Shown here piece after piece: positions 40,915 through 64,000 of a DNA stretch of 64,000 bases. The position numbers and the translations under genes were made by a program. The DNA is taken from contig KB445800.1 in the NCBI GenBank assembly GCA_000320605.2, forward strand, positions 720,220-784,219. Reading direction: 5' to 3'. How positions within the stretch are numbered: position 1 is the stretch's first letter; the number at the start of each line of letters is the position of its first letter. Below the pieces are notes generated by a model. That model saw only the letters and a list, made by a program, of their open reading frames with translations, was not told the DNA's origin and ran no database searches. The stretch is from Gelatoporia subvermispora B. Lineage: Eukaryota; Basidiomycota; Agaricomycetes; Polyporales; Gelatoporiaceae.

Positions 40915-42730
40915 ATGTCCGTCCCTTTCACGTCGCTCTACATCGCTGGCCAGTACCGCCCTGCTAGTGACACCGGCACCTACGAGATTCGGAATCCTTA
41001 CAGCCAAGAGATCGTTGGCCTCGCTGCTGCTGCTACGAGCCAGGATTGCCGGGATGCAGTCGAAGCTGCCAATCGTGCCTACCAATCCTGGGAGAACACA
41101 CCGCTCAGTGTTAGGCGTGACGTCTTCCTGAAGGCTGCCGAACTCGTCCAGGGAGACAAATACAGACAGAAGTTCACGTCTGCTGTGCAAGACGAGACGT
41201 CTGCCGTCGAATGGATGGTTGAGTTCAATCTCGGGGAGGCCGTCAATTGGTTGCGTGAATACGCAGCGATGACACTCGAGTACAAGTCGCGTACTTATCC
41301 GTCCGGGTTTCCTGGAGGGAATGTGGTCGAAGTCAGGAGAGCGAAGGGCGTTATGTGGGTATTTTGCATATACACGGAAGTTTCTCAACTCAAAGTTGTC
41401 GGTAGTTTCGGCATTGCTCCATGGAATGCGCCTCTGATCCTCACATTACGAGCCGCTGCGATCCCCATCCTGGGTGGCAATGCAGTCGTTCTCAAGTGCT
41501 CCGAAGTGAGCCCTCGAAGCCAATCAATTGTAGCAGAACTTTTCAAAGAGGTACAGTACTTGTTCGATTTATTCGATCGTGTTTTAAGTACTAATCGGCA
41601 CACCGCAGGCTGGGTTACCGGATGGTGTTTACAATTTCATCTCGACGTCGAGGGCAGATGCCCCCGCTCGAGTGGCAGAAATCATCGCAAATCCTCTCGT
41701 TCGAGCAGTCAACGTGAGCCTACGGGAGCGTCACCAAAAATCTAGAGCTGACTGCTCGAATCGACAGTTCACAGGTAGCGATGTGGTGGGAAGGGTCATC
41801 GCTGGCGAAGCTGCGAAATACTTGAAACCATGTATTTTCGAGCTCGGCGGGAAGTCCGCAGTTGTCGTATGTTTCAATTGCAATAGCGACCACTCCCCTT
41901 TTCACATGGTTCTAGGTTCTCGAAGATGCTGATATCGAAAGGGCGGCACGGGCGATCACGTCTTCCACCCTATGCCACTCTGGGCAAATCTGCATGTCCA
42001 CCGAACGCGTGATCGTTGCTCGCAAAGTGGCGCCGGTCCTTACAGCCGCGCTGACAGAGCTATTCAGCAAGACTAGAGCAGGAGGCCCAGAAAACGATAT
42101 TTCCGCGCTGTTCAGGGAGGATTCCGCAGTCAAAGTAACTCAGATGATCAATGACGCGAAGGAGAAAGGCGCCACACTTTTGGTGGGCGATGGATCGCGA
42201 AAAGGCTCCGTCATGCAGCCGCATCTGGTGACCAATGTCAAGCGTGACATGTGGATCTGGAATAGGGAGACCTTTGGACCAGGTGCGCATTTCGTCAGGC
42301 ATATATAACCACAGCTGATCTGGCGTACCCAGTGACAACTGTTGTCGAATTTGACACTGTCGAGGAGGCGCTTGAATTGGCAAACGCCACCGATTACTCC
42401 TTGTCGTCTGCACTATGGACACAGAATGTTAACGCTGCCTTTGACGTTGGAGGCCGCATTCGGACCAGTGAGTACACAAGTATTATTGTACGTGGTCGAA
42501 GACTCATTCTGGCAGGCTATGTGAACGTCAATGGTCCAACGTTCCACTTAGAAGGGTCTGGAGATGGCCTTGGAGGCTTGGGGTGAGCGCGTCCTACAAT
42601 TCTATGTCTGGCTTTCCTTAACTTTTGCTGTAGTGGTGCCACCGGATATGGGCGTTTTGACATTCACAACTTCACGGACGTCCGCTGCAACAATGCCATA
42701 CCCTGTAGTCGGATGATTTGTGCGTCGACA
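40915..42730 (+). CDS. Aldehyde dehydrogenase (aryl/vanillin-dehydrogenase-like)
   Basis: The enzyme oxidises an aldehyde to an acid with NAD(P); its closest look is to aromatic aldehyde dehydrogenases. The ATG at 40915 gives MSVPFTSLYIAGQYRPASD. Conserved blocks follow in order through several introns: GIAPWNAPLILTLRA, KCSEVSPRS, GLPDGVYNFIS-type, FTGSDVVGRVIAGEAAKYLK, FELGGKSAVVV (general-base Glu), SGQICMSTERV with the catalytic Cys at 41991-41993, WNRETFGPG, and GATGYGRFDIHNFTDVR. The expected end, PYPVVG and stop (about 42690-42718), is in the +1 frame relative to the upstream exon. Compared with the fragment at 9.5-10.2 kb, about 20 bases are missing just before it, so the conserved frame reads on with an unrelated tail. 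That is a real mutation or an assembly slip. It lies next to PAL, which suits cinnamate or benzoate metabolism. Confidence 0.82.
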
Positions 42731-42939
42731 TGTTTGCAGAATGTACTAATCTTCTACGAATGTATGTTCGATATCTCCCACAAAGACATTCCTATGTTAC
42801 ATCGAGATGCTACAAGATCAAAAGGAGATAAGCATCGTATTCTCACTCCAAAGAATTCCCGCAAACATGGCACTGGATAGACGAAATACTGAAGCTTGGG
42901 CACAAATACAGGGCATCATGCCAAAATGCGACGCCGGAA

Positions 42940-45507
42940 TTATTCAAGCATTCCGATGATCACGTCTTGCATTTTGCCATCTCGGATTGCCTGGGGTACG
43001 CATGAGTGAATCGTCGGAAGCAATGATGATTGTGTGATTACCTCATGAATGACTGAGATCTCCTGTCCAATTGTTGCGTCGGAACCCTTGAAACCGGAAA
43101 GATTGTGTGCGCCGTGCATGCGTATGCCCAGAGTGGTGCGCACAAACTCATAGACTGTCCGCGTGCCTCCAAGCATCTTGCTCGCAGGCGCCACACCCTT
43201 CTTACCAGTTAAGTACGCCTCCCGCAGTTCTATCAGCAAATTCGCGCCTAGCAAAGCGATATCATCACGGAAGCGAATGATTTCTCTGAGTACAGCAAGG
43301 GTTCCTTGCTGCGAGCAGAATTCGACAATGGGGGGTAACGTCGCAGCTGCGACAGCTTGCATTCGCTCCGAGGCGTCCTTGGTACTCGTGTGCTCGAGCT
43401 CTCGAGCGATCGCACGAGACACTGGTGGGTAGAGTTTATCGAGCTTATCCTGAGAGAGATGAGCGCCGAAGTGCTCGCCGAGCTTCTCTTTGACGATGAC
43501 TCGCAAACCCGCGTCGAACTCTACCTGCATTGCACGGAGGTCGAGCGCCTGGCAGAGCGCGTAGAGGTAGCTTGCCGCGAGTAGCGAAAGCACCTGGACG
43601 GCGTCCACAGTGGCACGAGCAGATACCAATGCCATCGAACTACAAAAGAATTAATCTTCAGCGCATTCTTAATATACATAGAGCGTCGAAATACTCACTT
43701 GATAGCCTGATTGTGCATCTCGGCCGATTGCACGTGCGTCGAAACAGGAGACGCGAGGTGGCCAAGTTCAGCAACGTACGCTGCAGTATGGACGTCGATC
43801 CCCTTCGCCAAATAGTTCAGCGATGGATCCGTTGCGGCAAGATTCGGTGGCAGTCCTCGATTCATGGCAGGGTTGATTAACTCAGTGCACTGCGCAAATA
43901 GGAGTTTTCCGACGTGGTGCAGAGAAAGGCGAGTCTTCTCCATTGCATTAGTGACAGACATGGCCTGGAAGTTACCGCCATGATGAACGCGACCGGTCTC
44001 TCCGTCGATAAGCGGGTTGTCCGTTGCTAGTCACGTGAATACGTAAGTGCTGAACGCAGCGCACAATGTCGTTCGCTTACTAGAGTTACATTCCCTGGTG
44101 ATGACTCTAAGTGCAGAGAGTATGTCTTCGATTTGCGGGCCCAGAAATTGCGCTGAAGTGCGCAAAGGATAACGATCCTGGCGCAATTCCCCAACATCGT
44201 CTGAGATATGCTTCTCCCCTTCTTCTGCAGCTACCGAGAGCTGCGAGTTCTTCAGTAGTTTCCGCACGTTCTCTGAGACTTCGACCTGGCCGGGGTGCGG
44301 GCGAGCGACGTCGTGTATGAAGGGGTCAAATGAACCCTGTGCGCCGATTAAAGCTTCGGTACCCATGGCAGTGCAAACTTGTGCCAGCAGGGCGAGATGG
44401 GCTGCATCGTGTAACGCAAGCGCTGCGACTGAGGCGGAGAATGCCGTTCCATTGACAATTCCAAGATGCTCCTTGGACGACAGTGAGATCGGCTCGATAC
44501 CGTGAGCGGCTAGCGCACGATCCGATGACACAATCTGTCGTGATTTCGATAAGGAAGGCCCATCGAATACTTGGATAGATGGGTTTCCGATTATAACGCC
44601 CGCAATATACGAAAGTGGTGAGAGATCTGCGACGAAATGGGAAAATACCGAATAAATAGGTTGTGTATGCGTGTAATAGCCAGGGTACTTACCACCAGAA
44701 GCAGAAATACTCCCACGAAGGGGAACGAAAGGCGTGATATCTTCTCGGAGAAGCTCAACCATCTTCTCTATCAGCTCCCATCGTACCCCGGAATGGCCTC
44801 GAATGAGTGAATTGACTCGGATCAATATAGCTCCGCGAACCCAAGCTTCAGGCATACTAGTAGACGCGAGCGGATCAAGAAGTGGAAGGACCGGTAAGAT
44901 CGTATTGACGTCCGACGGAAGAACGCCACATTGAAGATGCTGCAATAATGCGTGTCCGAGTTGCAGAGGGTCCCCAGTCCGTGTATCAGCTGGTAGGTTA
45001 CGTGAGATCCGCTTCAAAAGTGGCAATCAAGAGTGGGGCACTTACCGCTTCCGCCAAAACCCGTGCTGACACCATAGACGCTGGTTTCGGCGCCAACCTT
45101 CGCCACGACGACTTTGCGACTCTTTGCAACCTTATCCTTGACCTGAGCGGAATCGTCTAACAACACAGGCACTCGATATCTAGCAGCAGCTGTGATGGCC
45201 GATAATGACAACTTGTATCCATTCACGATAAGAGATTTTCCGTCCCTAGGGAACGGCGAGTATCAGAATCAAATTTCGTAGACGCAACGCGTCGATGCCG
45301 ACTAGCTGACACCGTAATAACTGACCTTAATGCTTGGAGGTCCTTGTGTTCGCGGATAAAGGTAGTCAATAGCGTAGGCTCCGAGAAGGCGTGGTATTCC
45401 GACTGCGAATGCCCGTTCATCTTGACAACATCTCCGTTGGACACTATGTGCGGAACGGGCAACCGAGGTAGGCTCTCCAACAGGTGTTCAGTGGTCGTGA
45501 CGGTCAT
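42940..45507 (-). CDS. PAL: Phenylalanine ammonia-lyase
   Basis: PAL converts L-phenylalanine to trans-cinnamate and ammonia, the entry to phenylpropanoid metabolism. The ATG at 45507 gives [16 protein letters not shown]. The active-site tyrosine motif [10 protein letters not shown] is encoded near 45080-45045. The Ala-Ser-Gly triad that forms the MIO cofactor is at 44702-44694 and is completed as [13 protein letters not shown] across an intron (44692-44627). Other hallmarks are [34 protein letters not shown], a [10 protein letters not shown] segment and MHNQAIK. The C-terminal shielding domain has [16 protein letters not shown] and ends [11 protein letters not shown] at 42942-42940. Around 720 residues are expected, as in fungal PAL. 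All key residues are present. Fungal PAL and HAL share this fold; the overall similarity favours PAL, or PAL/TAL with mixed use of tyrosine. Confidence 0.93.
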
Positions 45508-47248
45508 GGCGGAGAGATCGCAGAATGTATGGGGGCAAGTCAAGAAGTCAAGCACGACACACAGCGGGACCACAATTCAAGTTATCTGCAGTGGAGGCGA
45601 CTTATAACTCACGGGCGGAGCGCAGGTCTGGTGCTGGACAGCGCCCGAAACGTCGGATCTGCCCGAAAAACCGAGTCGCCGGCAATACACTTTGAGAGTG
45701 TGAAGACCTTTACTGTATCAACGTCTGCTAGAGACACCGTAATAGTTCCGTTGCTGTAGAAGTGGTTGGTGAGCCTGCCCAGTGCTGGGTCGAAACAACA
45801 GCGTACCAAAGCCCGTATAAATATATCGGACCTCACACCCAGACCGTAGATAGAGGACCCCAGTCCGCAGTCGGATCAGTTTGGTAGAACAGAAATCTGA
45901 TAACCAATCAGACAGACTGATGCTGAGAACGTCCTTTCTCGAGTGCTTTCGACAAATGAGCGAGCTTGTAATGGCGTTCGTGGCAAAGCGTGAGTTCTGC
46001 ACCATCCTTGAGGCTGTATGATAGGCCGTCAGTAGTGGCAGTTGAGATGCCAAAGTGGGAGTTGCGAACACTCTCAAAAGAGAGCCAAGATACACTATCA
46101 CTCCAACCGATCAGATGTCACCTTGAGAGTACTGCAATGCATCATAAAATCATGCCTCATACAATAATACGACGCTCGTGGGTTGTGCGATTAGAGTATA
46201 CCCACCCAAATGCCAAGACACCATACAAGACCAAGGCATCTAAGCTCCTGCGCGTCGTACTGTATAAGGAAGGAAATATACGATGCACCATTACCATGTT
46301 CTCGGATGGGAAGGCATTATCACGCGTTGGAGGGTCTCGTGAAAGTCGGCTCTGAAGATTCAAACCGGCCGCCGTACTTTCAGAGGAGCATTGAGCAATA
46401 TGAAGAGGACATACAGCCAAGGGCGCCGCGTGGGAGCTAATGACCTTCGAATATTGAATGGCTACTATGACCTGGCGGCTGCAGCTAATCTCAGATTACT
46501 CGGAGCACAAATCCACTCACCAGCCTACACTGACGGAGCTGGTCGGAGTATGTTGTCGGAGGCCCAACTGAACTTCAAGACTCAAGTAAGCAACGACACG
46601 TCTCATGCACCACCGCACTGGTGTGCTTTTGATACGTGCAACCACCTAGTTGGCATGCCAAACATTTCATTGGTATAGGCCCCGGCGTTCCAGCAGGGAA
46701 CTGTACCGGATAATGTATCCTCCTTCTCCTGGCCGCTTTATCCTAGCTGTTAGTGACTTTACGCGTGAGATCCAATTGATCAGGGCTGGCTTGGTATTGA
46801 CGGTTCTTCACGATTACCTACATATCAGTACTTGGATTTGGTCAGCACTCAGTCGCTGGTGCGCGCATCTCTCGATGTCTTTCTGCTAAATCTACCATTG
46901 GTTCTATGCACTTCATCGGGGGCCACCGGGACAATCGGGTGAGTGCTGTGTCATACCCGCGAGGATCCTCTTTGTGCGGATCTTACGGCGCTGCCTTCTG
47001 TCCTGCCATGTACTATAGTTGTGACCACCGATTTCGAAGCAAGGCAGGAGGCAAATGTTTGATACATCGGGTCCTGGAAGGTGGTAGCCAAGCCGGAAGC
47101 GTGTTGCCGGACTCGTAGGACAGATAGACAAGATCACGATTATGACTGAATGATTCAGCAACACAGGTTCCGACTTGAGAAGGAGGGTATATAGTAAGCA
47201 ATGTGTACAAGATAGCTATATCCTACTGAAGCTCTCATGCAAGTGGAC
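45508..47248. other. Intergenic between PAL and the CoA-ligase gene
   Basis: This 1.7-kb space is PAL's upstream region and the ligase's 3' flank. Frames at 45609-45836 and 46391-46678 look loosely protein-like but have no known motif and no in-phase partners. They may be relics. No gene is called. Confidence 0.35.
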
Positions 47249-49253
47249 TTATGCGCATAAATAGACTCTATCTATCAGTGTTGCGAAGATCTCTTCAGTG
47301 GCCTTCCTCTTGATATTGCCTTTCTCCTGGAAAGATATCAGCTGACAGCAGCGATTCTTTAGTGTCACAGAACTGACCGCGGTGCGGGGTAACAAGCCGG
47401 GAGACACAACTATAATGCGCGATGGACAATTGATCCTCTCAAAAGGGAACAGCCGGTCATTGAAAGACGCAATCCTCTCGACAATCTGCTCCTTCAACTG
47501 CTTGTTCTCGTCTGGCGAACCATGGACAGATGTCGGGGTAGCGTGTGGTTCCACCATTAAGACGGCGTGCGGTCTGTAATTACCCACCACCACGCATGCG
47601 TCGACGATGTCGGGACATGTCTTCAAGACGTTGCTCTCGATGTCCCTTGACTGATTATCAGTGACGCAACACAACTGTGGGGTAATGGACATACTTGGCA
47701 TCGATTAGACCGGGCTCGGTGCATCGAATCCAGTCATCACGTCTGCCGCCTAGTCAACGTCGTCAATGTTATTCACCGTGATAGCACTGCCCATTTCCGC
47801 TTACGAAATAGGTATGCACCCGGTTCAACTTCTTCGAAGAAATCACCAGGGGCATGTCCATCGGGTCGGTTACGAATTGAAACGTGGGGGCAGTTGCGAG
47901 CATGAGCAGGAACAAAGAACTCGTATAACTGAGGCCGGGAGCTATCTTGGTCTTGCCCGTTGGCTTCAGGATCAACCCCGGCGGGTATCATGCGGCACTG
48001 AACACCAGGAATGAAGCGGAAATGCATGTTCCCAGAGCGCAGTGTTGATACCATGCATGGAGCTACGGTAGTTACTGCGTATCAGATCTATTATAGCATA
48101 CGAAGATTTGAACGAACCACATTCAGTGGACGCGTAAAACACCTATGAATCGATGCAATGAGCATTATGTCACACAGAAATTGCAGCACTGACAGTAATT
48201 GGGATTCCGTTATCAAGCGCCCATTTTTCGTCTGCGGGGCTCAGAGGCGAACCGGTAAAAGCAACTTGGCGAACGCCCTGAAGCGCCTGTAAGACGTCGG
48301 GGTTCTCGCGTGCAGTCGCGATGAGCTTGGTTAACCAGTTGGCGTACTGACTGAGGCGATTCAGCCCGCAGTTGCGCACTGCGGAGAGGAAATTATCAAC
48401 GCTGATGTCGAGCCTGGGCATAATGACAAGGCAGGCTCCAAAAGGCGCAAATTTCGGAATGCCTTAGAGGACCAGGACTGTCAGTATCCTTCGGACACAA
48501 TTTTCTGCCGTAGGCTCTGAACTCACTCAGGGCGGCCCCAATATGGGCGAGGCTACCCATGTTGTTGAATACGTCCGGGCCGTCCTTGTAGCCACCTTGC
48601 CAGATACCTGGCCAGTTGACGGTGGTGAGTGCGGTGATCCATCTGTGGGTTTCAGGGATTGGCTTCGGCCGCCCCCCAGTTGTGCCGCTCGTATGGAAGA
48701 TGATGGCAACATCTTCGCCCTCTACAGTTGGAAGGGGTCCAAGAGAGTCAGGACTAGGTGTCATAGCAGCTATATCGATGACCTCAAATGAGGGACTGAG
48801 GAAGTCAATTTGCTTGACAACGTCAGCAAAGCGGGACACATAAACTAGAGCCTTGGCGTTGCACTCCCTCAGTAGATCGCGTACTACTACACCTCCAGGG
48901 TGAGAGTAACGTATACTGAACACTTCGGGGACAAATCCGGCCCTCGAGATGGCGTACAGGTGAACCAAGTCCGTCCAAACTTCGCCGGTCAGCCTTGGAG
49001 AGAGTGAGGCATGATCAGCCTAGGTTAGGATACGACGAGCGTACCATAGGCCAACTACGTCTTGTTCTACAAGCCCGGATGCCCTAAGAGTCTGTTTCCA
49101 ATGAGCAGCAGCCTTGTGGAGACTCTGTGCGTATTCCCTATATGTAACAGAGCTCCATATGAGCTCGGGCGATGTTGCTGCAGCATATCGAATGAGGATA
49201 GAGTCCGGAAACTTTTCGAGACCCGTGAGAACAGTTGTCAGAAAGTGCGCCAT
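47249..49253 (-). CDS. AMP-binding acyl/aryl-CoA ligase-like enzyme
   Basis: This member of the ANL superfamily activates a carboxylic acid with ATP and usually transfers it to CoA. The ATG at 49253 gives MAHFLTTVLTGLEKFPDSIL. After a short intron comes LTGEVWTDLVHLYAISRAGF. The ATP loop is FHTSGTTGGRPKPIPETH near 48700. The later core region is rebuilt across two introns as GRRDDWIRCTEPGLIDAKD, containing the hinge region. The C-terminal lysine motif is KGNIKRKA near 47310. The stop is at 47251-47249. I see no carrier-protein or reductase domain, so it is a stand-alone ligase rather than a synthetase fragment. Its position between PAL and a halogenase suggests cinnamate or benzoate as substrate, but the binding pocket cannot be read reliably here. 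Confidence 0.85.
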
Positions 49254-50860
49254 GTTCTAGCACTGTTCGCCCAAGCGCACTACAACGTCCGTTATATATT
49301 CACGCACATATTCCTCGAGCGGGTCCTGATGCTCATAGTCCGTGATCGGATATGACGAGTTACACCAGATTGTGAAACCGATGCAGGAGCTTTCAAGGGC
49401 ATCTGATACGGTTGTTGTCATTGTCATTGAATGATGCATTACCATCCCTATACTACCTGAATGGAGAGAAGTTGCATCCGTGCGAACTTCAGTTATCACA
49501 TCAGGAGATGCGCAAATCAATAAACCTTCCTTTTGTGCCCTTAAGACCATCCACATCCTCGGAAATGTTATTCTGATGAACAACGGCCAGATTTAACGTA
49601 AGTGTGATCGATGACACCTTCGTTGAAGGATGATGTAGTTTCAGCCTTCGAGAAGTTTGATACGGAATGGTGCGAGAGCAGCACGCAGAATCGTTTCGGT
49701 GTGAGACTCACAAGTATTGCTTGAAGAAGGCCCGCCTGTGACTTCTTTCTCAATGACTATCACAGACTTCGAAACGCTCGGCAGGGGCCGCACTACATCC
49801 CTGCGAAACACAAATCCCACTGGAGAAAGAAGACGGGAAAGAGCATCAGCATGTTCCCGCCACCGTGTCGCTGCCAGGTGCCGGCCCCTCAGAGGCCCTG
49901 TTGTGTCGACGCGGTGCGTGCTGCTGTTGAAAGCCTTGAACGATTTGACAGAAATTCTCTGTCAGTACGGATGTCACTTGCGTGTCGCGATGTTCCAGGT
50001 AGCCCACCTTGATCGATGTTATAAACAGCCGCCATACTTAGGCATTATCCCAGCAGTCGACTGGCACGTAGCGCAGGATATGTCGAAGGCAACGCGTTAC
50101 TCAAAAGGTGGCATGAGCAGCGCCGTACGGTGTTGGCGCTCGCACACAGCTCCGATGTCATCGTGGCAGACTGCCGCTGTTGTATTAGTTTCATGGGAGG
50201 ATCTCCCGCACGCTCCTCATTACGGCGCCACTGGAACCCAGGGAAGGAAATTGAACTGACTTCGAAAATCGCTTTCTGCGGACAGGCTGTGGTCAAAATG
50301 CATCATCGTGCGATCCGAGCGAGTTGAGTGCGAATCCCGTAAGGTGTTCTCGGCATTCGTGTACGAGCAAGCAGTTATTCGAACTTCCACCAATCCAAGC
50401 GGTGGCGTCGGACGATGTAGACTTGCGCTCCTCGAACCACGTGTTGGTTGCGGCAGCGAGACATCCCGACGAGAGTAGATTCCGAACTAACGTCCACGAT
50501 AAGCGCTTAATCTGGACGTAACTGAATGGTCATGTGAGCTTGCTCACAGTGAGCACTGCTCGCTGAAGAACCTTGAGACCAACGACTGCTATTTTTGTCC
50601 TACAGCGTTTGCTTATCCGTAGAGATTTTCACCACTGTCATGTTCCTGATGCTCAAGAATAGATCCGGTGATAGTACCAGCCACGAAGAGAGTCCAGTAT
50701 CAACCCGGATCGGACTGGACAGCCATTGCAAATGAACGTGTCGGCGTTTTCAGTCATTATAGTTTGATATCTGATTGCTACAGCGCATGACTCCCCACAA
50801 GTCAATAGACCTATAAACAGAGTCCGCCCATGGATCGACTGAGTGCACTTTGTCGCCACG
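49254..50860. other. Intergenic, divergent region
   Basis: 1.6 kb between the divergent starts of the ligase and the membrane-protein gene. A 180-codon frame (49717-50259) starts at a non-ATG codon and has no motif. No gene is supported. Confidence 0.35.
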
Positions 50861-52046
50861 ATGGCTTTCGGTCTCATCGAGGCCCGTATCTTAGGCTTGC
50901 TCATTTCCAGTTTCTTCCTTGGTGTCCACTTGACGACTACATGTGTGTGCGTTTGGGCCATTCTCGTATGGAATCCTGCGCGCGGAAGACGCGTTCATTG
51001 GGGATTTCTCGCCGCAACATTGATGATGGCAATTATCGGCACAGTCGATGTGTCGACAGACGGTGTTACCAATGTTCGCGTGTGGACAACTGGAAACCTG
51101 AAGTTGTTTACTGACGAGACCGTATGGATGAACTTGACGAAGGTGAGTACCTAGGCTGACACACGTTCGCAGGAAATCTCATACACTGTCACTCGCAGAA
51201 TGTAGACATCAGTCTCCGGTTACTCATAGGAGACGCTGTGCTTGTCAGTTGGTTGAGTTTGTCGCATATATGTATTGATTATCGTGCAGATCTACCGTTG
51301 CTGGATAGTGTACGAACGCAAGTGGTTAGCTGTCATCCCGTCGTTGCTCGTGTGGTTGGGCAACGTGACCGCCTCCATTATCCTGATCGTACGATCTGCG
51401 GATGCCGTGGGGATATCATCTGGAATCAACGCGCCGTCTCTCGTGCCCTGGACCACCGCAGAGCTGGCTCTGACTGTGGCTCTGAACACCATCACATGCT
51501 GTAAGTGCAACAGAATGCACTTGTCGTTATGAACATGAACAGCTGACGCAATACAGCACTCATCGTCTTCCGCATCTGGACTGTTAGTCGCTCTGTCAGG
51601 TCAATTGTAGCAGGCCCAGACAGGCTGTTGTATGCCATGCGCGTTCTCGTCGAGTCTGGAGGATTCTACGTGCTCAGCGCGACCATCACTCTTATCACTG
51701 TGTTGACGCGGAGCGCTGCCGTCTACATCACTGCTAACAGCGTAAGTGGAATCGTTATCTTCAGAACCGGCCGGAGTCTCTCATCGTTGTGCACTATCTT
51801 TAGCTCTGTCAGATAACGGCCATTTGCTTCAACTTGATTATCATCCGCTTCGATCGCAACCTTGCGAACAAGAGCCAGATTGCAACAATGTCTGCTTCAA
51901 GGAGCATTCCGATGAACTCTCTGAATCAAGGCAGCCGGGCCAAGTCTAGCACAACTCCACAGCGTTTTGTGGAGATCGAGGTGCAACGGGCGACTGCAAC
52001 GGATGCAGAGTCTCTCTCAGTAAACTCAAAGGCAGGCGAGCTTTGA
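50861..52046 (+). CDS. Seven-helix membrane protein of unknown function, copy 1
   Basis: A multi-spanning membrane protein from a family that, as far as I remember, is expanded in basidiomycetes and has no known function. The ATG at 50861 gives MAFGLIEARILGLLISSFFL. Helices follow in LTTTCVCVWAILV, GFLAATLMMAIIGTVDV, QIYRCWIVYERKWLAVIPSL, ASIILIVRS, VALNTITC, LIVFRIWTVSRSVRS, VESGGFYVLSATITLITVL and CFNLIIIRFDRN, and then a Ser-rich cytosolic tail ends at KAGEL. At least four introns are needed. Copy 2 at 59.3-60.5 kb is close to it block by block and on the other strand; copy 3 is broken. A role in the neighbouring metabolite locus (transport, sensing or resistance) is only a guess. Confidence 0.8.
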
Positions 52047-53586
52047 ACGACACCACGTTTTGTATTGTACTAGGTTTCTGGCCTTCATTGTGTACAGTCG
52101 GTAGACGATACTTCTCTATGCCCTCCTGTTGGTGAACGCCTCTGATCATTGATAGTATGTATTATTCTCGAGTGCCGATATGTAGCGTTAATTGGGTGTT
52201 ATTTTGTTTTCGCCAAATCGGTATGATCTGAAAGTCTGAATAGATTGTTCGGTGTGCCTACGGCATGCTCGAGAAACTGATGCCATCTTAGATACTTCCC
52301 TTCTGTCTCGGGAGGAGTTCTGCATTAGTGATGAGTGAATTGCATCTGCATATGCTTACTTCCTACAAATCAATGTCTTGCTAAGGCACAAGGCTGAGCT
52401 TGACGAGAGGGGATCGGGACGAGCAGGCGCGGATATTTCGGTGATTGCTGCCTGCAGATTGGCGCCATCGAGCTCCGATTGTGACCCTCAGAGAACTTGA
52501 CAAGGCTTCGCCCTGAACGTGATACTATTTGCCATCCTTCTCACGTAACTGCAGCTGAACCCACTTCTTGCCGCTAGTAATGATAGTGATGATCATGTTA
52601 CGCGCAGTGCTGTTGTTGCCGTTGTTGTTGAATTATCTGACATGCACACTAGACACGTGAGTTGATATCTCCTCATAATCATGTTTTTCGGCTCGGGATG
52701 ACTCCGGGTGCATGGCTTGTATCTACGTCTGCATTGTAATCTCTGTTCGGCGATGCCAAGCGGAATCAATAAAACTGCAGACCTCCGCACCCTATATGAC
52801 GGCTGCTATCTATCCTCGAAGTTCGATATCTATCTGTTGGGTGCTGTACAAGGATACCTGGCGTACACATAAAGCCGGTAAACGCGAGATTACATAGCCT
52901 CAATCAGAATATCCCACGAGCACTCTTTCTGCTTCGGAATTGCAAAGGGATCCAGGCATAAGTTATGCCCTCATGTCAAATGCTGATGTGAAGATGCACA
53001 TGGCAAATTCTGGAAGTTCACAGTCAGTGTTGTCATGGTCCTTTCCCGGCTAACTTCTCTCTATTCTCACTCTGTCCATGTACTCGGTGGCACTTCTTAT
53101 TTTCTGATGACGCCACCATTTGCTGAAAGCAGACAGAACTTCACAATGTAGCTCTGTTCTTCTATGACGACCTTCGCTGCTCAAACCCGCCACCATTGCC
53201 AATGTGTCTGCACCTATCACATCGAGTCTACTTCATGTGTGTCCTCAAGGCCACACATGGATTTCGTGATAGACAGATGACTGTTCTCGGGTATGCGAAG
53301 CTGTCTCAGATTCTCATTCAGCTTAAAGCGTCCACATCTCAACCATGGAACACTATCAGAATTCCTCCAGATGCGACTACCATAATGTTGGAGAGATATT
53401 CGGCTAAAAATTGAGATAGACCAAACTTTCGAAACATGTGACTAAGTCGTTCACTTTGGAGAGGCCTCTCCCGAGCTAAAATTTTGATAAGTGCCTTGAG
53501 ATATTACCAATATATATAGAGCACTGTACCAGATTCACCTCTCAGTCAGCCAAATTGCCTCGCTCAATCGCAGTATATTCGAGAAC
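52047..53586. other. Intergenic, no gene seen
   Basis: 1.5 kb upstream of the halogenase-like gene; it must contain its promoter. Short frames only, and a few GTTGTTG-type repeats near 52613. Confidence 0.4.
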
Positions 53587-55732
<2,146 letters not shown>

Positions 55733-56815
55733 ATACGCCTTAGCGATTGCTATCTTTTTGCTGTATATGGGCTGGAGCGTCCTGTACAAATATATCCCTT
55801 GACGAATTGTCCTGATACTAGGCCATCGAATACACTTTTTGCGATCTTATGACCATGACCCGAGATGTCACCCAGACAGGTTATGCATCTAAGAATTCTG
55901 TGAAGCAATTGCCATTGTCACCTACTCATACGTGCCGCAAATGAGGCACTATCGATTAGCTATATCAAAGGTCATTCCTACCAGGTTGCGGGACCCTGGT
56001 TCTCATCTGCGGGAACTGACAGATGGATCGCAGTACCTCCATAGACATGTCGACACTGCCGAAGAAAGATACCACAAAGCTGCCGTCAGCAAATGCACTT
56101 TTGTCAAGCCACTTCTCTGGCAAAGGCATATCAAGCCTCGGAAAGAGCCTCCGAGCCGGAATAATGCGACCGATAAACAGTTAGATCAACAGATGTAGAT
56201 GTCGCTGTGTTGCTGTGTGCGATGGGGCTCTCGATCACGTACTCAATAAGCTCGTCAAGGCTGCGCATGGTCGAGAATCCGAAAGGCCTAGCCAGCTAAC
56301 CCCTGCCGTTATCGACGGACCCGCGGCATGCAACGCTCGGTGATTGGGTATGTACCAATCAAGGTTGCATTGGGCCCCCTTTGGGATTCTGACTGTCTTC
56401 GATCACGTTCCTATTATGTGCCTGTCAACGTTTGCATTCGCAGTTGCGATCGGCTACGAAACTGATGCGAGTTGCAAGTCCTCCCGCGATCACACTGCTT
56501 GATACTTCATGAAACGTACCCGCGCTTACATCTACCATGCATCTTTTCAGGGATATGATGCTGCGGATCGTGGCATACTGCGAAACTATAGGCTAAGGAT
56601 GTGGGCGATCTGCAGCAGCCGACAGCATGCCATCCCATTCTCTGCCCGACGTTTACCGCGTGAAGAGAGTACAGCACCATACGTGTGCCAATCTTAGTGT
56701 GCATAGTTGGTGTATCACGGATTTTCGCGTAAATATCAACCTCCAAGAGTAAAAGTACAGCAGTATCAGACATCAGTCACATAGAACAGTTTGGTCTTTG
56801 CAGCACTTTCGAAGT
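55733..56815. other. Convergent intergenic, halogenase / O-methyltransferase
   Basis: 1.1 kb between two 3' ends. No coding feature was recognised. Confidence 0.45.
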
Positions 56816-58721
56816 TCAGATAGGCGAAGCAACTAAGCGAGGCCACCTTTCTCCACGTCCACAAACCACCCGCTCAAGCCTCCACCCTGCTTGCTTGAGC
56901 AATTCCCAGAAGTGCGGAATAGTGCGCTCCTGCGCATTGAAGTGCTCCATCACCTACATGACATGGCGTGAGCACGCTGTTCATAGGAGTCTGTACCTGG
57001 CTCTGTACTCACAAAGCAATCCGTGTTGTACTGGACAGAAGACACGATTCCATAATTCGGCAGGAGAGGCGAGGGTGCGTTCTGAGGTTCTGAGCCAGGG
57101 ATATCCATGTAACGACCCTCGGTGCGGCAGGCATATTGCACGATACTATCCGATACGATAAGTAGCGTCTCCGGGGCGGCCGCCTCGCGAAGCCGGCGTA
57201 AAATTTTGACTGCGTATGGGGTGGGCCAATTGTGCGTGATACCTCGTACAAAGAAGATTCGCGCGTTCTTAATTGGCTGCTCGTTGAAGAAGTCGTGTAC
57301 TGTATTGATGCATCAGCTCAGAGTAGATTATGGGGTGCCGAAATGAGATGTCCCACCTTGAAGAAGCACCTGGCCAGACTCAACCGCCTCCGGTCGGTTT
57401 GCTTTCCAAAACTGAGATAATATCTTGTCAGTGGCATAGATTGTTTTTGATACCTCCCACGTACTGCATGCGCGTCTGCAATGACAGGCTCGATGTCTTG
57501 CACCACGTATTTCAAATGCTTACATTCGTCGTATAGTACTTGCATGCTCGAGCCGACACCACCGCCGACATCTACAACTACACTTCCCTCCGGAAGCTCA
57601 CTCCATTCAAACCCTATACGGTTCACCAGTTAGCTTGTCGACTATTAACGAAAATGATTCTCACCGGTGAGAACCTCCCGTAGGCTACCAAGTTGATTGG
57701 TACCCGTCATGGCCGCGTCAAACCTCTTCCCTCGTGCTCTGTTCTCCGGACGGTGTAGCCACTCGTAGTACGGAAGCTCAGTCCCGAATGCACGATTGAA
57801 CGCCGTATCAGTATGGGACTCGGAACGAGCCGTGCGCGGGTCGGTGAGAGTTTCAGTGAGATATACGGCACTCTTCGACATATCGGCAACCCTACACACG
57901 GACACGAGATTAAATCACATCAGACGCGGAAAGAGATGTGCAACCTACATATCCACTAGTGCTGCAATACCAGTGGTTCCTTCGAATTTGTCATCAGGGC
58001 TGTTGAAGGGTGAGATCTGATCAACGAGGCATCGTTCAAGACTCAAACAGGTCATACTTCGCTTTGAGTTCTTGGAGCGTCTTGCGAGTATCCAGCGATG
58101 CCGAGATCCGATTATTGGAAAAGACATCGGGAGAGACCTCCTTGAAGACATGGTATGTGGCGAGAAGCCGCAGTAGCCGGGCTGTGAAGGAAGTTCACAG
58201 AATCAGCTGACCTCTTTTGGAGTAACATTACCTAGCTTGTGACTATCCATGTTGTTCTTTGCGGCAATTTCATCTGCATGCATCCCCTAGCAGACTCACA
58301 TCAGAATGAGATTGCAAAAACTAATAGATAGTTCACCATGCACCTGTGTCCCAGCATCTCGCAGTATTTCTGGCACATTTCCCGCCATCACAGCTCTCAG
58401 CGCAGCGTTGGGTTGGATCTAGCACATATCTTGTCAGTGCCCAATTTATCCCATAATCCAATCGACCAATAACGGAATCAGACACACATGGCCCACAATA
58501 GTTCCCGCAAATTGGCCCGGAGGCTGCAGTGTTGCTATGAGCTGGTGCGCTGCCGCGATAACTGCCATCGTGTCGCCGAACACCGACTGGCGGACTGCTT
58601 CGCCGGCGAGTGAAAAGGGGTCATCGAGGGTTGGGAACTTGGTCCCTCTCTCAGCGCACTTGGTTTGGATGGTGGCGACACCACGAGAAATGATACTAGC
58701 GAGCGTTTCGAGATCGGCCAT
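56816..58721 (-). CDS. SAM-dependent O-methyltransferase
   Basis: A class-2 O-methyltransferase, the type that methylates phenolic or carboxylic oxygens of small molecules. The ATG at 58721 gives MADLETLASIISRGVATIQT. An N-terminal helical (dimerisation-like) region follows in several exons, including LFRALRLLATYH-type sequence near 58180-58130 and a hydrophobic segment near 57960. The SAM site is VVDVGGGVGSSMQVL near 57590-57540, followed by QDIEPVIADAHA. Later blocks are the HDFF-like and RGITHNWPTPYAVKILRRL segments near 57230-57170. The end is VMEHFNAQERTIPHFWELLK then WRLERVV, with a TGA at 56818-56816. About ten exons and 450 residues are likely; many exon edges are uncertain. It could methylate the halogenated phenol of this locus; I infer this from position only. 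Confidence 0.82.
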
Positions 58722-59338
58722 GACCAGTCCTGGCGTATAGGGATGAAGATGGAGTCAACAGAGGGTATTGCGGTCCGTCCATGGGAGGGCCTTTAAGTTG
58801 AGATGATATACCACTAGTTGTTTCGGCCATCTGAAGCTGTCAAGAACCGGGACCACCTGAGCGATGGACTACAACACCGGGTCAGAGATGCTGGAAGGAG
58901 ACTATTTCTATTCTAGGTTGCTTATGTGGCAGCCTAGGGCTATGGCGCCAATTGAGGAGGAAAGCGCCAAATTAAACGGTCTTCCACCGATAGAGCCCCA
59001 TGAGATATGTTCCCATGTATATACACGGAGCCAATAAGCGGAGTAGGAAGAGCCCGCTCTGTGTACGTTACGTTCGATGTCGAGTGCCGTTCACACTCTC
59101 AGAGCGGTCGCTGCATCTTTTTGTGCCTACACTCGACCTCGGGATATGCCCGAAGGGTTCACTTCTCAGCGCACTCTGGTGTTACAATGTATACTACTAC
59201 ATACAATAAATATCATGGTTACCCAAGCTGGTATGCAGCAGCTACAACATGAGATCGAGAACTTTGGACTGAGACATCCGCAATGGCGTACACATGGAGG
59301 GGCGCATAGATCGAGCGTATGGAGACAGGATGGGCCAT
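58722..59338. other. Intergenic
   Basis: Upstream of the O-methyltransferase and downstream of membrane-protein copy 2. No gene was seen; the methyltransferase promoter must be here. Confidence 0.45.
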
Positions 59339-60547
59339 CTAGGCAGCGCTCCATTCAGTGTCTTTGAGACTTCCAGCCTTGAAGTCTCCAGAGAAGCTAG
59401 TATCTACCTCCATGTTGCGCGATACCGCTATTTCCACATGCTGCGCGCCTTGACCTACGCTTGTGGGTGCGCGGGTGGAGGATGGTGCTAGCGAGCTCAG
59501 CGGTATGACTTTCGAATTGATTACTGTCTCAACCTCGGTTTTACTTGCGAGGTTCCTGTCGAAACGGATGATGATCAAATTGAAGCATATGGCAGTGATT
59601 TGGACGAGCTGTCCACTTCCGTCAGTCACATTATTCGGTCAAGAGAGAGGACACGCTCACGGAGTTGGCAGTGATATAGACTGCGGCATTCCGCGTGAGC
59701 ACGGTTATGAGCGTTATCGTCGCAGTCAACGCGTATATTCCACCAGATTCGACGATAACGCGAATCGCATAGAGTAACCTGTCCTGTCGTCTTCCAGCTA
59801 TGTAGGCCCTAACCAAGCGGCTGACGGTCCAAATGCGATACACAATTAGTGCTAAAAGAGTGTCAGCAATATTTCGATAAATGAGTCAATAGACACACAA
59901 GACGTCAGTGTGTTGAGTGCCACAGTAAGCGCCTGCTGTGCAGCTGTCTCGGGCACCAGAGATGGCGAGTTGATGCCAGATGAGTTGTTGACCGCGACTA
60001 CGGATCGCACGAGAAGAATCACGGTGGCCACCAGATTACCGACCCAGAGAAGTAGCGACGGTGCCACCATAAGCAGCCTGTACTCATAGACTATCCAACA
60101 CCGATAAATCTAGCATGGAGCATCAGACTGTCATTTTCGAAAATAAGCAACTGAGATGACTTGCGAGTACGGCATCTCCGATGAGCAGCTGGAGGCTGAT
60201 CATAATATTCTGCACCGAACATTAATGAGTATTCCATCCGAAGACGCGATGCGGAGGATACATACCCCGAACAGGCTCTCCCACGAGGACTCATCGATGT
60301 ACAACATGACATCCCCGGTTGTCCACACGCGGACATTGACGAATCCGTCTACCGCCACACCGAGTGTACCGATGATCGCCATCGTCACCGTTACCGTGAA
60401 AAAGGCCCAGTTGATGCGCCGCCCCTGCGCTGGATTGCGGACGAGCAGTGCCCACAGGCATATCGTCGTAGTCGTGAGGTGCGCCCCGAGGAAGAAGCTC
60501 GAAAACAGCAGCGCAAGGATGCGCGCCTCGATAAGCCCGAACGCCAT
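59339..60547 (-). CDS. Seven-helix membrane protein of unknown function, copy 2
   Basis: Paralogue of the gene at 50.9 kb. The ATG at 60547 gives MAFGLIEARILALLFSSFFL, differing at three of the first 20 residues from copy 1. Matching helices are LLMVAPSLLLWVGNLVAT, VALNTLTS, IVYRIWTVSRLVRAYIAG, VESGGIYALTATITLITVL and CFNLIIIRFDRNLASK. The Ser/Thr-rich tail ends in KDTEWSAA and a TAG at 59341-59339. Introns sit at the same places as in copy 1, so duplication was at the DNA level. It is close downstream of, and in the same direction as, the broken copy 3. Confidence 0.8.
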
Positions 60548-61589
60548 TGCTACTGCGGGTGCGCAGCTTGCCCGGTGTGTGTTCGTTCTCGTTTATACGA
60601 ACCACTCTACGACTTCTTCGACGAGAACAACTGAACTTATTTAGAGGAAGCTGGTGAGCAGTGCGTTCATTCACCATATGAACTATTATTGAGAGCTAAC
60701 AACCATGAGTGAAATGTATGAAACGCGCTTAGAGGGGTCGCAACGCAGGGACGGTGCGAGAATCTCGACCAGTATGGATTGGGCTCCATGGACAACCCGG
60801 GATGATCAACCATGACCATCGTCGTGGCGCGCGATGCTATACAAGTGGACAGCAACCGGCGCTGTTCGTCTGTGAACTATTATCGCAGACAAGGAATGCA
60901 AGGCAGTGGGCTCCTAACAATCGGAAGACGGTGGCAATATACGTGCGCAGCTATCGAGAAGGCGCACGTTATTGGACTCATGGTGGGCATGGGATCGGCA
61001 TGAGATTCGCTGCGACCTGATCATCAGTCAGATGCAGGACGAAGGGCGCCAGTATGAGCTCATGTTCTGGTACTTGGCGGCGCGCGCGAAAGGGGTCCAG
61101 GGTTCTGAGATGACAGCGGCGATGCGAGCCCCAGGTAGGGTGTAGGATGCCATGCTGAATAAGAATCAGCTCCTTTAGATCTTCTCGGGGGTCACGCTGG
61201 ACGGGCGGGGCTGTTCAGTCTTACACGCTATAGAAGCCCCAGCTCACCTCATGTCTGCAGGAGCCACAGATAGAATACATCATTGAAACGGCACGATGCC
61301 TGTCAACGTAAATTCACTGCACACGTCATGTCTGCGGTTGCCCGAGGCGCGCTATAGTAGGACTTGTCAACGGGTGACAGATCATGTGACCTACTTCAGA
61401 ACTATGGCCACAATCTGCTCGAGACGGTCACAGGCGGGTTACGGCGGGGTGGAAGTCAATGGCACATTCAGGAGGTGATGAGCCGGGAGATCGTGGCGTA
61501 TGTGCAATCCGGGTGCCTGAGATCATCAAACGATTGATTGTCTAAATCCGCCTTCCAGTTCCGGGAGCCCAGTGTGTCCACCAGACACG
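60548..61589. other. Intergenic, no gene seen
   Basis: About 1 kb between copy 2 and the broken copy 3 of the membrane-protein gene. Short frames without motifs. Confidence 0.4.
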
Positions 61590-62190
61590 ACTACCGTCGG
61601 TTGCCGTGTGTGGGTGGACAGATGCACTCGCGCAGTTCGCGGTGATATAGACAGCGGCGCTCCGGACGAGCACGATGATGAGCGTGGCGGCGGCGGCGGC
61701 ATAGGCTCCGCCCGACCCGACGAGAACGCGTATCGCCTACATCATTCTCTCATGCCGGCCCGCTATGACTGCCCTGACAGAGCGGTTGGCGATCCAAATG
61801 CGGTCGACTATCAGACCTGTGGATGCTATTAGTGGAACTACCCCATTCGAAGTGGATCGGCGTACAAGACGTGAATACGTTGAGTGCCACAGTCAGAGTT
61901 TGTTGGGCGGCAGTTTGGGGGACGAGAAACGGCGCGTTAATGCCAGATACTACTAGGATAGTCCAGTCACGCTGTCTACTACGGATTGGACTACAAGAAA
62001 GATGGTCGCTGCGAGACTCTCTAGCCACAGCATCATTGATGGGACAATCGTAGGCCATTTTCGATCGTAGACAACCCAATGCCTGTGAATGTGCATACGT
62101 GTCAGGAATGAACGCGCACAAAGCTCTGTAAGCACTAGCGAGGACGGCATCTCCAACGAGTAGCTGAAGGCTGATGCCTATATTCTACAA
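61590..62190 (-). pseudogene. Broken third copy of the seven-helix membrane-protein gene
   Basis: Minus-strand blocks match the other two copies in order: HWVVYDRKWPTIVPSM near 62070, VVSGINAPFLVPQTAAQQ with TLTVALNVFTSC near 61950-61870, VDRIWIANRSVRAVIAGRHE near 61790, and AIRVLVGSGGAYAAAAATLI near 61730-61670. The TAC codon expected before AIRVLV reads TAG (about 61741-61739), an in-frame stop. The N-terminal part is missing or unrecognisable. The segment 61650-61720 is noticeably GC-rich compared with the other two copies. It cannot encode a complete protein. Confidence 0.8.
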
Positions 62191-63165
62191 CAGATAGAGA
62201 TTTGAAGGTGCCCGTCGCTCGAGCGCATTTCTTCGGGCCCATGACAATTCCCGAGGCAACGGGGGCAACGGGCAACGATTATTCAACAACTCGTTACCGA
62301 TATCAGTTTATCCTTCAGACTCCACAAAATGGAACGTTCACAGTTATTTGCTTTGAGAACCAAGATGAAACGTGTAGGGCGGTATAACATGAGAAGCAGT
62401 GGCTTGGAAATTGCTCACCTCGACCGTTAGGACTCAGAAAATTGTACCAGGAAGGTCATATTGCCCTTGAAGAGGACTACATCGTGCTGTCAGGAGTTCG
62501 TTGCACAAGAAAGTCTTTCCAGGACCTCTGCGAGATGCTTCATGAGTAACACTCTGTTGGAGTTGACTTTGGGCTGACGATGACGGTTTCGAGCGCGCGC
62601 TCTCCCGCGATGCGGTATTATGACTTCCCATACATGGATATATCGGCAACTTCCGTCTGACCGCCGCTTGACCGCCGCTGTGGCTCCGGTATTCTTCTCT
62701 TTGGTTGTCGACTGAAGTACTGAAGTCTGCCCACTGATTTCTTTGGGAGAGACGCACACACGGCTGCAATCATTCTCAAAGTCTGGTCTCAAATCCTCCT
62801 AGATCAACATTACTTTTGCATCCGGAGCATGAAGACGTGAGAGACACACACCCGAAACATTCGTGGCAGACGCCGCGGGGCGCCTTCCCTGCCTCGCGGT
62901 TTAGCTACATTCTATCGTGCATCTCCAATTCCGCCGCACGAACTCTGATATGTACGCAAATAGCTGCGAGTACCGCAATTGGCCAATGCGGACCGGCCGG
63001 ACGTGCAGACACACCCTTAGCAGGTGTATGGGTGACACACCTACTGTGGCCTACGCAGATTGCTCCGCGCCGCATCCTGAAGGCCTGATCCTTGGCGGCT
63101 CGAATTCTGCTCTGGTTGAGCCCCAGGTCTTTCCAAATTCCTACTGAGGCTACCAGAATCTTGAG
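62191..63165. other. Intergenic, upstream of the MFS exporter
   Basis: No coding feature was recognised. It includes the exporter's promoter. Frames at 62434-62792 on the minus strand are Arg/Ser-rich without motifs. Confidence 0.4.
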
Positions 63166-64000
63166 ATGAGTACATCTTCCCCCCAGAGTGTACCACCAGC
63201 GGGTGCGGCTGGAAGTGTTCAGGTCGTTGAGGCCAGCGGTAGCAACTCCGCGTTGACCGCAACTGGGAATGATACGAACGCTCTTTCAAAGGTCGATGTA
63301 GTCGAAAAATTACAATCAGAGGGTGGCGAAGATGAGGGGCCCAAGCAGGACGCAAGGTTCTGGCTCGTCTACGTCGCGATTTGCACTGCGCTCCTGTTAG
63401 CTGCTCTGGACATCGTACGTTACTCTGAAGTGCTCGGAGCTTCACCTCGACCTTACCTTCCACCTCAGACATCCGTATCAACCGCTGCACCAACGATCGT
63501 TAGTCAACTACATGGTGAAGACTTCACATGGGTGTCCACAGCGTACACTCTCGCGTCCGCCGCCTGTCTTCCTATGAGTGGCAAGCTCGCGCAGATATTC
63601 GGACGGAGGTCGACCATGCTCGGGGCGCTGCTCATCTTTGCAGTGGGGTCTGCGGTGTCTGGGGCGGCGAAGAGCATGACAATGCTGATTGTGGGTAGAG
63701 GTACGGTTCTACCTTGGCACGTCTTAAATGTCTCGCATGACGTCGTGTAGCTATCCAGGGCGTTGGAGGCGGAGGAATCCAGTCGTTGACAAACATCATC
63801 ACTGCCGACCTGGTCCCGCTGAGCAAGCGCGGCAAGTTCATAGCTATCACTACGATGTGAGCCCGCGCTGAAGATTGTTACGACCTTGACTGACAACAGA
63901 CTCGTAGGATGTTTGCTATAGGTTCTCTTACTGGACCATTCATCGCTGGAGGCCTCGCTCAGGACGCTACATGGCGCTGGCTGTTCTGTGAGTGTGTTAG
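63166..64000 (+). CDS. MFS drug:H+ antiporter (DHA2-like), 5' part only
   Basis: This exporter belongs to the 14-helix drug:proton antiporter group of the MFS, often found in fungal metabolite clusters for self-protection. The ATG at 63166 is followed by a hydrophilic cytosolic tail of about 60 residues. The first helix is FWLVYVAICTALLLAALDI, then after an intron SVSTAAPTIVSQLHGED and FTWVSTAYTLASAACLPMSG. The loop motif KLAQIFGRRSTMLGA follows, then the helix RAIQGVGGGGIQSLTNIITA-like region across an intron, and IGSLTGPFIAGGLAQDATWR. The sequence stops inside or at the donor of the next intron (TTCTGTGAGTGTG). The remaining roughly two thirds lies beyond the window. It reads away from the cluster core. 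Confidence 0.88.

What the first reader, a model, noticed from the sequence alone, without database searches (positions are those of the whole stretch)
40915..64000. Candidate halogenated phenylpropanoid/benzoate metabolite locus
Within 23 kb lie an aryl-type aldehyde dehydrogenase, PAL, a stand-alone acyl/aryl-CoA ligase, a WxWxIP flavin halogenase-like enzyme, an O-methyltransferase and a DHA2-type exporter. Seen: the catalytic motifs of each. Known: PAL plus CoA ligase gives cinnamoyl/benzoyl units in fungi, including strobilurin biosynthesis; some basidiomycetes make chlorinated anisyl compounds from phenylalanine. Inference: these genes form one pathway making a chlorinated, O-methylated aromatic. 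No polyketide synthase is in the window; one beyond 64 kb would shift the reading towards a strobilurin-type product.
Basis: partly seen in the sequence, partly recalled or inferred. Interest (0 to 1): 0.8.

Follow-up and report, generated by a model that had tools for sequence, protein, structure and literature searches.

The report
Halogenase–ligase gene group, white-rot fungus
A wood-rotting fungus carries, side by side, a gene for an enzyme that probably puts chlorine on aromatic rings and a gene for an enzyme that probably activates aromatic acids, and relatives of the two also share a contig in some distant mushrooms, so this may be a small production unit for a chlorinated aromatic compound whose identity is unknown.

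Summary
All six genes are real and look intact in the models. The genome is Gelatoporia (Ceriporiopsis) subvermispora B. The halogenase (53587-55732) is RadH/ArmH-type with the expected motifs. The 'ligase' (47249-49421) is a stand-alone adenylate-forming enzyme of an uncharacterised, mostly Agaricomycete family; a second copy lies just past the window (67198-69205). In public protein tables this ligase family and the halogenase share a contig in 6 of 19 other species (0.5-0.9 expected), and one protein model in a further species holds both. The pairing is probably selected, though five of the six species are Agaricales. An OMT and an exporter sit beside it. Other links are weaker: PAL shares a contig with halogenase or ligase in 1 of 25 species, chance level, although window PAL is a faster-evolving duplicate with a tyrosine-lyase-like His-Leu dyad. 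No ketosynthase match lies within about 596 kb, so a strobilurin-type cluster is not supported. Best reading: a PKS-free, carrier-free unit making a chlorinated, probably O-methylated aromatic. Origin from phenylalanine or tyrosine is possible but unproved; the product is unknown.

The parts
40915..42716 (+). Aldehyde dehydrogenase, vanillin/salicylaldehyde-dehydrogenase-like; one of three local copies (two lie left of the window)
   Evidence: Gene model; PF00171; best PDB hits vanillin and salicylaldehyde dehydrogenases. C-terminal exon ends are approximate. Link to the halogenase not shown.
42940..45420 (-). Phenylalanine/tyrosine ammonia-lyase, diverged duplicate with His-Leu selectivity dyad
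   Evidence: PF00221; public protein P0178 scores 807.6 bits on TIGR01226 (cut-off 519.15); dyad; tree. Contig test against linkage: 1 of 25 species.
47249..49421 (-). Stand-alone adenylate-forming ligase AMP1 (PF00501+PF23562; no carrier or reductase domain found)
   Evidence: relatives share a contig with a halogenase in 6 of 19 other species
50861..52046 (+). 7TM-like orphan gene, copy 1 (model approximate; 7TM nature judged by eye)
   Evidence: no Pfam hit
53587..55732 (+). Flavin-dependent halogenase, RadH/ArmH type
   Evidence: PF04820; 441 bits to RadH 8gu0; GWAWFIPL at 223 and GFARKPGA at 71 of P0001
56766..58721 (-). O-methyltransferase, GedA-like; glycine-rich SAM motif and HNW present in the model
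   Evidence: PF00891; GedA 7wh9 158 bits; about 14 related loci elsewhere in the genome
59339..60547 (-). 7TM-like orphan gene, copy 2
   Evidence: no Pfam hit; 25% identity, 3e-15 to the N-terminal part of P0149, whose C-terminal part is a ligase
61632..61947 (-). Degenerate third 7TM-like copy (two fragments, one with an internal stop)
   Evidence: C10:781851-781982 and 782083-782166
63166..64000 (+). MFS exporter, 5' part; the gene runs on to 65538
   Evidence: PF07690 and PF06609; flank fetched

Best explanation
The core is a two-enzyme unit: a RadH/ArmH-type flavin halogenase and a stand-alone adenylate-forming ligase, possibly with the 7TM-like genes, here joined by an O-methyltransferase and an MFS exporter. 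Proposed working (general halogenase chemistry is recalled): the halogenase forms HOCl from FADH2, O2 and chloride, passes it along the catalytic lysine (K75 of P0001) and chlorinates a phenolic ring. The ligase adenylates an aromatic carboxylic acid and makes its CoA thioester, or transfers it to another acceptor. The OMT caps the phenol and the exporter removes the product. PAL and ALDH may supply cinnamate/p-coumarate and benzoate-type precursors, and the A-T-R reductase 11 kb beyond the window could reduce an aryl acid to the aldehyde; together that would give a chlorinated anisyl-type product. Shown: genes, domains, motifs, and halogenase-ligase contig sharing in other species. Inferred: substrate, order of steps, product, roles of OMT and exporter. 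Weakly supported: PAL, ALDH and reductase as parts.
For: Genes with catalytic motifs. Halogenase and ligase relatives share a contig in 6 of 19 other species (P. gigantea 96,561 bp; T. rancida 29,678 bp; M. crocata; L. atratum; M. filopes; M. floridula), expected 0.46-0.91. One protein model holds both domains (P0155). In the trees the window halogenase falls in an 11-row clade that includes P. gigantea, and AMP1+AMP2 group with P. gigantea and Irpex lacteus with weak support (94/58). A 7TM-like domain related to the window gene is in one model with the ligase in Steccherinum, and a 7TM relative lies 1.6 kb from the C22 halogenase. The AMP2 fold model (pLDDT 90.5) ranks 4-chlorobenzoyl-CoA ligase, CytC1, CAR and DhbE first in Foldseek. 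The PAL dyad HL was found in 4 of 120 PAL hits, the window's own included, and is called characteristic of TALs in PMC3789393 (passages).
Against: 13 of 19 species did not show the pair on one contig, though only 120 of 7791 halogenase hits were listed. Five of the six matches are Mycena or Lyophyllaceae (both families of Agaricales; the other Mycena species taken as the same genus), and two of the six contigs exceed 2.8 Mb, so independent support is two or three events at most. The C22, C17 and C10:1374 kb halogenases have no ligase relative beside them. The 7TM-like family has many other loci, about a dozen on C22 alone, so its nearness is weak evidence. PAL is at chance level elsewhere. No expression or metabolite data. 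The fold match is shared across the ANL superfamily.
Confidence: 0.47

Rival explanations
1. All six genes form one phenylalanine-derived pathway: PAL, ligase and ALDH make a benzoate/cinnamate unit, halogenase and OMT decorate it, the exporter removes it.
For: All genes lie in 25 kb; window PAL is a diverged duplicate, unlike the shorter-branched C17 copy; ALDH resembles vanillin/salicylaldehyde dehydrogenases.
Against: PAL shares a contig with halogenase or ligase in 1 of 25 species, as expected by chance; Obba has the same PAL duplicate and no ligase among the 57 listed; ALDH has two more copies about 53-58 kb to the left.
Confidence: 0.22
2. Only the halogenase-ligase pair (with or without the 7TM-like gene) is a unit; PAL, ALDH, OMT and MFS are neighbours of separate function, and the substrate need not be a phenylpropanoid.
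For: The pair is what comparative data support; the OMT has about 14 related loci and none near the other halogenases; PAL is not linked elsewhere.
Against: OMT and exporter lie beside the ligase and halogenase, between a NAC-domain gene at 39058-39684 and a TENA/THI-4 gene at 81665-82529. The link of OMT to the pair was not tested in other species.
Confidence: 0.25
3. Strobilurin-type cluster with the PKS just outside the window.
For: PAL plus ligase plus OMT plus halogenase; strobilurin B is chlorinated (PMC6158276 passages).
Against: Nearest ketosynthase match on the contig is about 596 kb from the window end and none lies to the left; no 2OG-Fe(II) oxygenase match on C10; the strobilurin cluster itself has no obvious halogenase.
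Confidence: 0.02
4. The halogenase homologue is a non-halogenating flavin monooxygenase.
For: No activity data for this protein; the wider family includes oxygenases (for example NCBIfam QhpG, 139.9 bits, under its cut-off of 240).
Against: Lysine and GWxWxxPL motifs kept; 441 bits to RadH over residues 4-429; all five ArmH enzymes are reported to chlorinate melleolide F (PMC9144378 section 36).
Confidence: 0.04

Closest known systems
RadH and ArmH1-5 flavin-dependent halogenases
   Same: Motifs, length, best PDB match (8gu0, 441 bits); ArmH enzymes act on free substrate (PMC9144378 section 36)
   Different: 52-53% identical to the two Armillaria-group proteins listed; armH genes are described as lying outside the melleolide cluster, whereas this one sits beside a ligase gene
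Strobilurin cluster (Strobilurus tenacellus)
   Same: PAL, ligase-type enzyme and methyltransferase in one stretch
   Different: Here no PKS match within 596 kb, one OMT rather than two methyltransferases, and a halogenase, which the strobilurin cluster is said to lack (PMC6158276 passages and section 6)
Chlorinated anisyl metabolites of Bjerkandera and Hypholoma
   Same: Would need chlorination, O-methylation and aryl acid reduction; candidate genes for these lie here or within 16 kb of the window end
   Different: I saw no report of such products from this species in the passages read; the cluster predicted in Hypholoma (PMC8181146 passages) has a benzoic acid reductase-PKS and a terpene synthase, with no halogenase named in those passages
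4-Chlorobenzoyl-CoA ligase, DhbE, CAR A domains (ANL superfamily)
   Same: Fold and core motifs
   Different: 14-19% identity in the 50 Foldseek rows shown, 12-18% in the 50 VIA rows; AMP2 reaches no NCBIfam cut-off

Membership tests
Fungal flavin-dependent halogenase (RadH/ArmH type) | GWxWxxPL motif | tested here: met
   GWAWFIPL at 223 of P0001; 119 of 120 listed relatives have the motif
Fungal flavin-dependent halogenase (RadH/ArmH type) | Lysine aligned with RadH K74 (its number counted by hand; its catalytic role is recalled) | tested here: met
   K75 of P0001, aligned; invariant in the 35-row alignment. The wider pattern G[FL]xxKxGA is met by 109 of 120 listed relatives
Fungal flavin-dependent halogenase (RadH/ArmH type) | Chlorinating activity | not testable with these tools
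   Needs protein
Strobilurin-type cluster | Highly reducing PKS in the cluster | tested here: not met
   The only PF00109 match on C10 is at 1,380,555 (exon-wise search)
Strobilurin-type cluster | PAL and CoA ligase | tested here: inconclusive
   PAL and a ligase are present; orthology to Str11 and Str10 not tested
Strobilurin-type cluster | Non-haem iron oxygenase for cinnamate to benzoate | tested here: inconclusive
   No PF03171 match on C10; that Str8 belongs to PF03171 was not checked
Phenylalanine ammonia-lyase | TIGR01226 above cut-off and MIO motif ASGDLSP | tested here: met
   P0178: 807.6 bits vs 519.15; ASGDLSP present in the model
Phenylalanine ammonia-lyase | Substrate: Phe rather than Tyr | tested here: inconclusive
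   Dyad is His-Leu, called characteristic of TALs in PMC3789393; the C17 copy is His-Gln
Aryl-CoA ligase | ANL domains and motifs | tested here: met
   PF00501 and PF23562; SGTTGG, GRRDDW and KGNIKRK present in the model
Aryl-CoA ligase | Aryl acid substrate and CoA acceptor | not testable with these tools
   No close relative with a stated function in the rows
Conserved biosynthetic cluster | Co-localisation of halogenase and ligase in other species | tested here: met
   6 of 19 species on one contig, 13 not, plus one single-protein model; gene distances not known
Conserved biosynthetic cluster | Co-localisation of PAL with halogenase or ligase | tested here: not met
   1 of 25 species, at chance level
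Conserved biosynthetic cluster | Co-localisation of the OMT or MFS with halogenase or ligase in other species | not tested
Chlorinated anisyl metabolite pathway | Production of the metabolite by this species | not testable with these tools
   No metabolite data; the five papers holding both this species and a halogen term that I opened (passages) do not report it from this species in those passages

The most novel reading that the evidence does not exclude
A PKS-free and carrier-free halogenation module of mushroom-forming fungi: a dedicated aryl ligase and a flavin halogenase, kept together from Polyporales to Agaricales (Mycena, Lyophyllaceae), act on a simple aromatic acid (perhaps p-coumarate or 4-hydroxybenzoate, possibly as its CoA thioester). 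It would be the missing genetic basis of chlorinated anisyl-type metabolites.
Probability: 0.2. Interest if true: 0.75.

Novelty: new variant of a known kind. Interest (0 to 1): 0.46.

Why it matters
Chlorinated anisyl metabolites are described as the most common organohalogens of basidiomycetes (PMC7036779 passages), yet for such a compound I found only a predicted cluster in the papers held here (PMC8181146). A ligase-halogenase pair seen in two orders gives a small, testable handle on that question, and a tag for finding further loci that searches anchored on a PKS or NRPS could miss.

Tried and rejected
PKS nearby: rejected. GMC/aryl-alcohol oxidase nearby: the only PF00732 match on C10 is at 451401, about 269 kb left of the window. 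2OG-Fe(II) oxygenase: no PF03171 match on C10. CYP53: not searched by family; the one P450 among the models that I scanned from C10:690-844 kb is a P450-reductase fusion at 20579-24363, and not all models there were scanned. Pseudogene reading of the ligase: rejected, no stop and 8 of 8 introns GT-AG. Hidden genes at 45421-47248 (six frames) and 49440-50860 (four of six frames): nothing convincing (best DUF4685, E 0.035, below cut-off); the other gaps were not scanned. PF04820 alone listed one place, on C7, and missed the window halogenase, presumably because of its short exons; a search with the whole protein found it. First gene-finder settings failed and forced settings fragmented genes; both discarded. 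Hand-drawn ALDH exons had frame errors; not used. The halogenase exon table was out by a base; P0001 used instead. Paper searches: I saw listings, and opened passages of PMC6158276, PMC9144378, PMC8181146, PMC3789393, PMC7036779, PMC4394507, PMC4752945, PMC7089950, PMC10117130 and PMC13413372, plus section 6 of the first and section 36 of the second. None of what I saw describes this locus; the other listed papers were not opened. PMC7089950 reports that another polypore, Rigidoporus microporus, has no Arm-like halogenase. On checking this report I corrected 'four of six' to 'five of six' matches from Mycena and Lyophyllaceae, and for that lowered the best explanation from 0.50 to 0.47 and raised the pair-only rival from 0.23 to 0.25; the non-halogenating rival went from 0.05 to 0.04 only so that the odds of the five readings sum to 1.
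Full report
What is there. The window is C10:720220-784219 of a 37.7 Mb assembly in 52 contigs. The halogenase matches 'halogenase [Gelatoporia subvermispora B]' at 100% identity, held on a contig of 1,486,382 bases, the length of C10, so the organism is the white-rot polypore Gelatoporia (Ceriporiopsis) subvermispora B. A self-trained gene finder (mean intron about 55 bases over 258 introns) and Pfam give: NAC-domain protein 39058-39684 -, ALDH 40915-42716 +, PAL 42940-45420 -, stand-alone ligase AMP1 47249-49421 -, a 7TM-like gene 50861-52046 + (membrane nature judged by eye), halogenase 53587-55732 +, OMT 56766-58721 -, a second 7TM-like gene 59339-60547 -, a degenerate third copy, and MFS 63166-65538 +. 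Beyond the window: a second ligase AMP2 67198-69205 +, an SDR 70769-71672 -, and an adenylation-carrier-reductase protein 75376-79480 - (PF00501, PF23562, PF00550, PF07993); its substrate is unknown, and L-aminoadipate reductases are also described as NRPS-like proteins (PMC7089950 passage).

The halogenase. Its best solved relative is RadH (8gu0, 441 bits over residues 4-429). The FDH motif GWxWxxPL, called strongly conserved in PMC9144378 section 36, is present as GWAWFIPL, and the lysine that aligns with RadH K74 is present and invariant in a 35-row alignment. That K74 is the catalytic lysine is recalled, not looked up. A halogenating enzyme is therefore likely, but untested. The genome has at least three other close homologues, at C22:433 kb, C10:1374 kb and C17:69 kb.

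Comparative test of the grouping. No eukaryotic genomes could be searched for synteny, so I used contig lengths in the protein tables as contig labels. Nineteen species other than Gelatoporia occur in both the halogenase list (120 best of 7791) and the ligase list (57). In 6 of 19 a halogenase and a ligase sit on a contig of the same length: Phlebiopsis gigantea 96,561; Tephrocybe rancida 29,678; Mycena crocata 483,686; Lyophyllum atratum 825,092; Mycena filopes 2,829,831; Mycena floridula 2,869,067. A simple contig-size null gives 0.46 to 0.91 expected and P of 2e-6 to 8e-5 for assumed genome sizes of 60 to 30 Mb. Thirteen of 19 showed no match. The list cut-off may hide partners. The contig column is for the longest contig of a cluster, so a cluster of several sequences may be mislabelled. 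Five of the six species are Mycena or Lyophyllaceae and only one is a polypore, so the six may stand for two or three events; two contigs are too large to say much. In addition, one protein model of Arthromyces matolae (P0155, 986 aa; Lyophyllaceae) contains both a halogenase and a ligase domain, and one model of Steccherinum ochraceum (P0149, 865 aa) joins a 7TM-like domain (25% identity, 3e-15 to the window gene) to the ligase. Both may be annotation fusions of neighbours, which would still mean adjacency. Trees put paired halogenases in a polypore-containing clade with the window gene and in a Mycena/Lyophyllaceae clade, with M. floridula apart, and put AMP1 and AMP2 with P. gigantea and Irpex lacteus, though that fork has weak support (94/58). 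The C22, C17 and C10:1374 kb halogenases have no ligase relative beside them.

PAL. The same test gives 1 of 25 species with PAL on a contig of halogenase or ligase (Crucibulum, 3.28 Mb), against 0.56 to 1.12 expected (PAL list is 120 of 4326; in some species the tables may hold different strains). So PAL is not a general partner. Yet it is not the plain copy either. The tree (41 rows) shows a duplication before the split of Gelatoporia and Obba: the C17 copy and Obba P0180 have His-Gln and short branches (0.098, 0.068), while window PAL and Obba P0179 have His-Leu and longer branches (0.32, 0.20). An HL dyad was found by a simple pattern in 4 of 120 listed PALs, the window's own included; four rows gave no motif. 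A paper passage calls HL characteristic of tyrosine ammonia-lyases (PMC3789393). This suggests, but does not show, more tyrosine use, which would give p-coumarate and a ready 4-hydroxyl group. Obba has the PAL duplicate but no ligase relative in the list, so the duplicate probably did not arise for this cassette.

Strobilurin. The strobilurin cluster has a PKS, and its authors found no obvious halogenase in it (PMC6158276, passages and section 6). Here the only ketosynthase match on the contig is about 596 kb from the window end. That one belongs to a different group: MFS, halogenase and P450 at C10:1371-1379 kb beside the KS.

Mechanism. My best reading is a small unit in which a free phenolic acid or its derivative is chlorinated by the halogenase, activated by the ligase, possibly O-methylated and exported. 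The order of steps is open. Confidence 0.47 for the core unit with OMT and exporter, 0.25 for the pair alone, 0.22 for the six-gene pathway.

Novelty. Enzyme classes are known; the recurrent ligase-halogenase pair is not described in anything I saw in the held library (searches; listings and passages as named under Tried and rejected). Those were narrow searches of open papers only.

Noticed in passing
G000:C10:1371169-1381238: MFS, halogenase, P450 and a ketosynthase lie together: a separate candidate halogenated-polyketide cluster on the same contig.
   Followed up: partly
G000:C22:430531-437456: A second close halogenase (433429-435533) with a 7TM-like relative 1.6 kb downstream and an SDR upstream, but no ligase relative beside it.
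   Followed up: partly
window 50861-52046, 59339-60547, 61632-61947: Three copies of a 7TM-like family without Pfam match, one degenerate; the family has many other loci in the genome, about a dozen of them on C22.
   Followed up: partly
G000:C10:702876-707510 (window -17343 to -12709): Two more ALDH copies related to the window ALDH, about 53-58 kb to its left.
   Followed up: partly
window 4337-7194: PIF1-like helicase next to a second ORF (2065-3683, not scanned); looks like a Helitron-type element (type recalled, not tested).
   Followed up: no
window 20579-24363: P450 fused to a flavodoxin/FAD reductase; CYP505-like by recall.
   Followed up: no
G000:C10:842379-843663 (window 122160-123444): Terpene synthase family 2 gene (PF19086) outside the window.
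   Followed up: no
window 47249-49421: The ligase AMP1 has no identical entry in the 57-protein list, so it may be missing or fragmented in the public gene set.
   Followed up: no
window 8147-9163 and 70769-71672: Two SDR genes of similar sequence (by eye; both adh_short) stand on either side of the locus on opposite strands.
   Followed up: no
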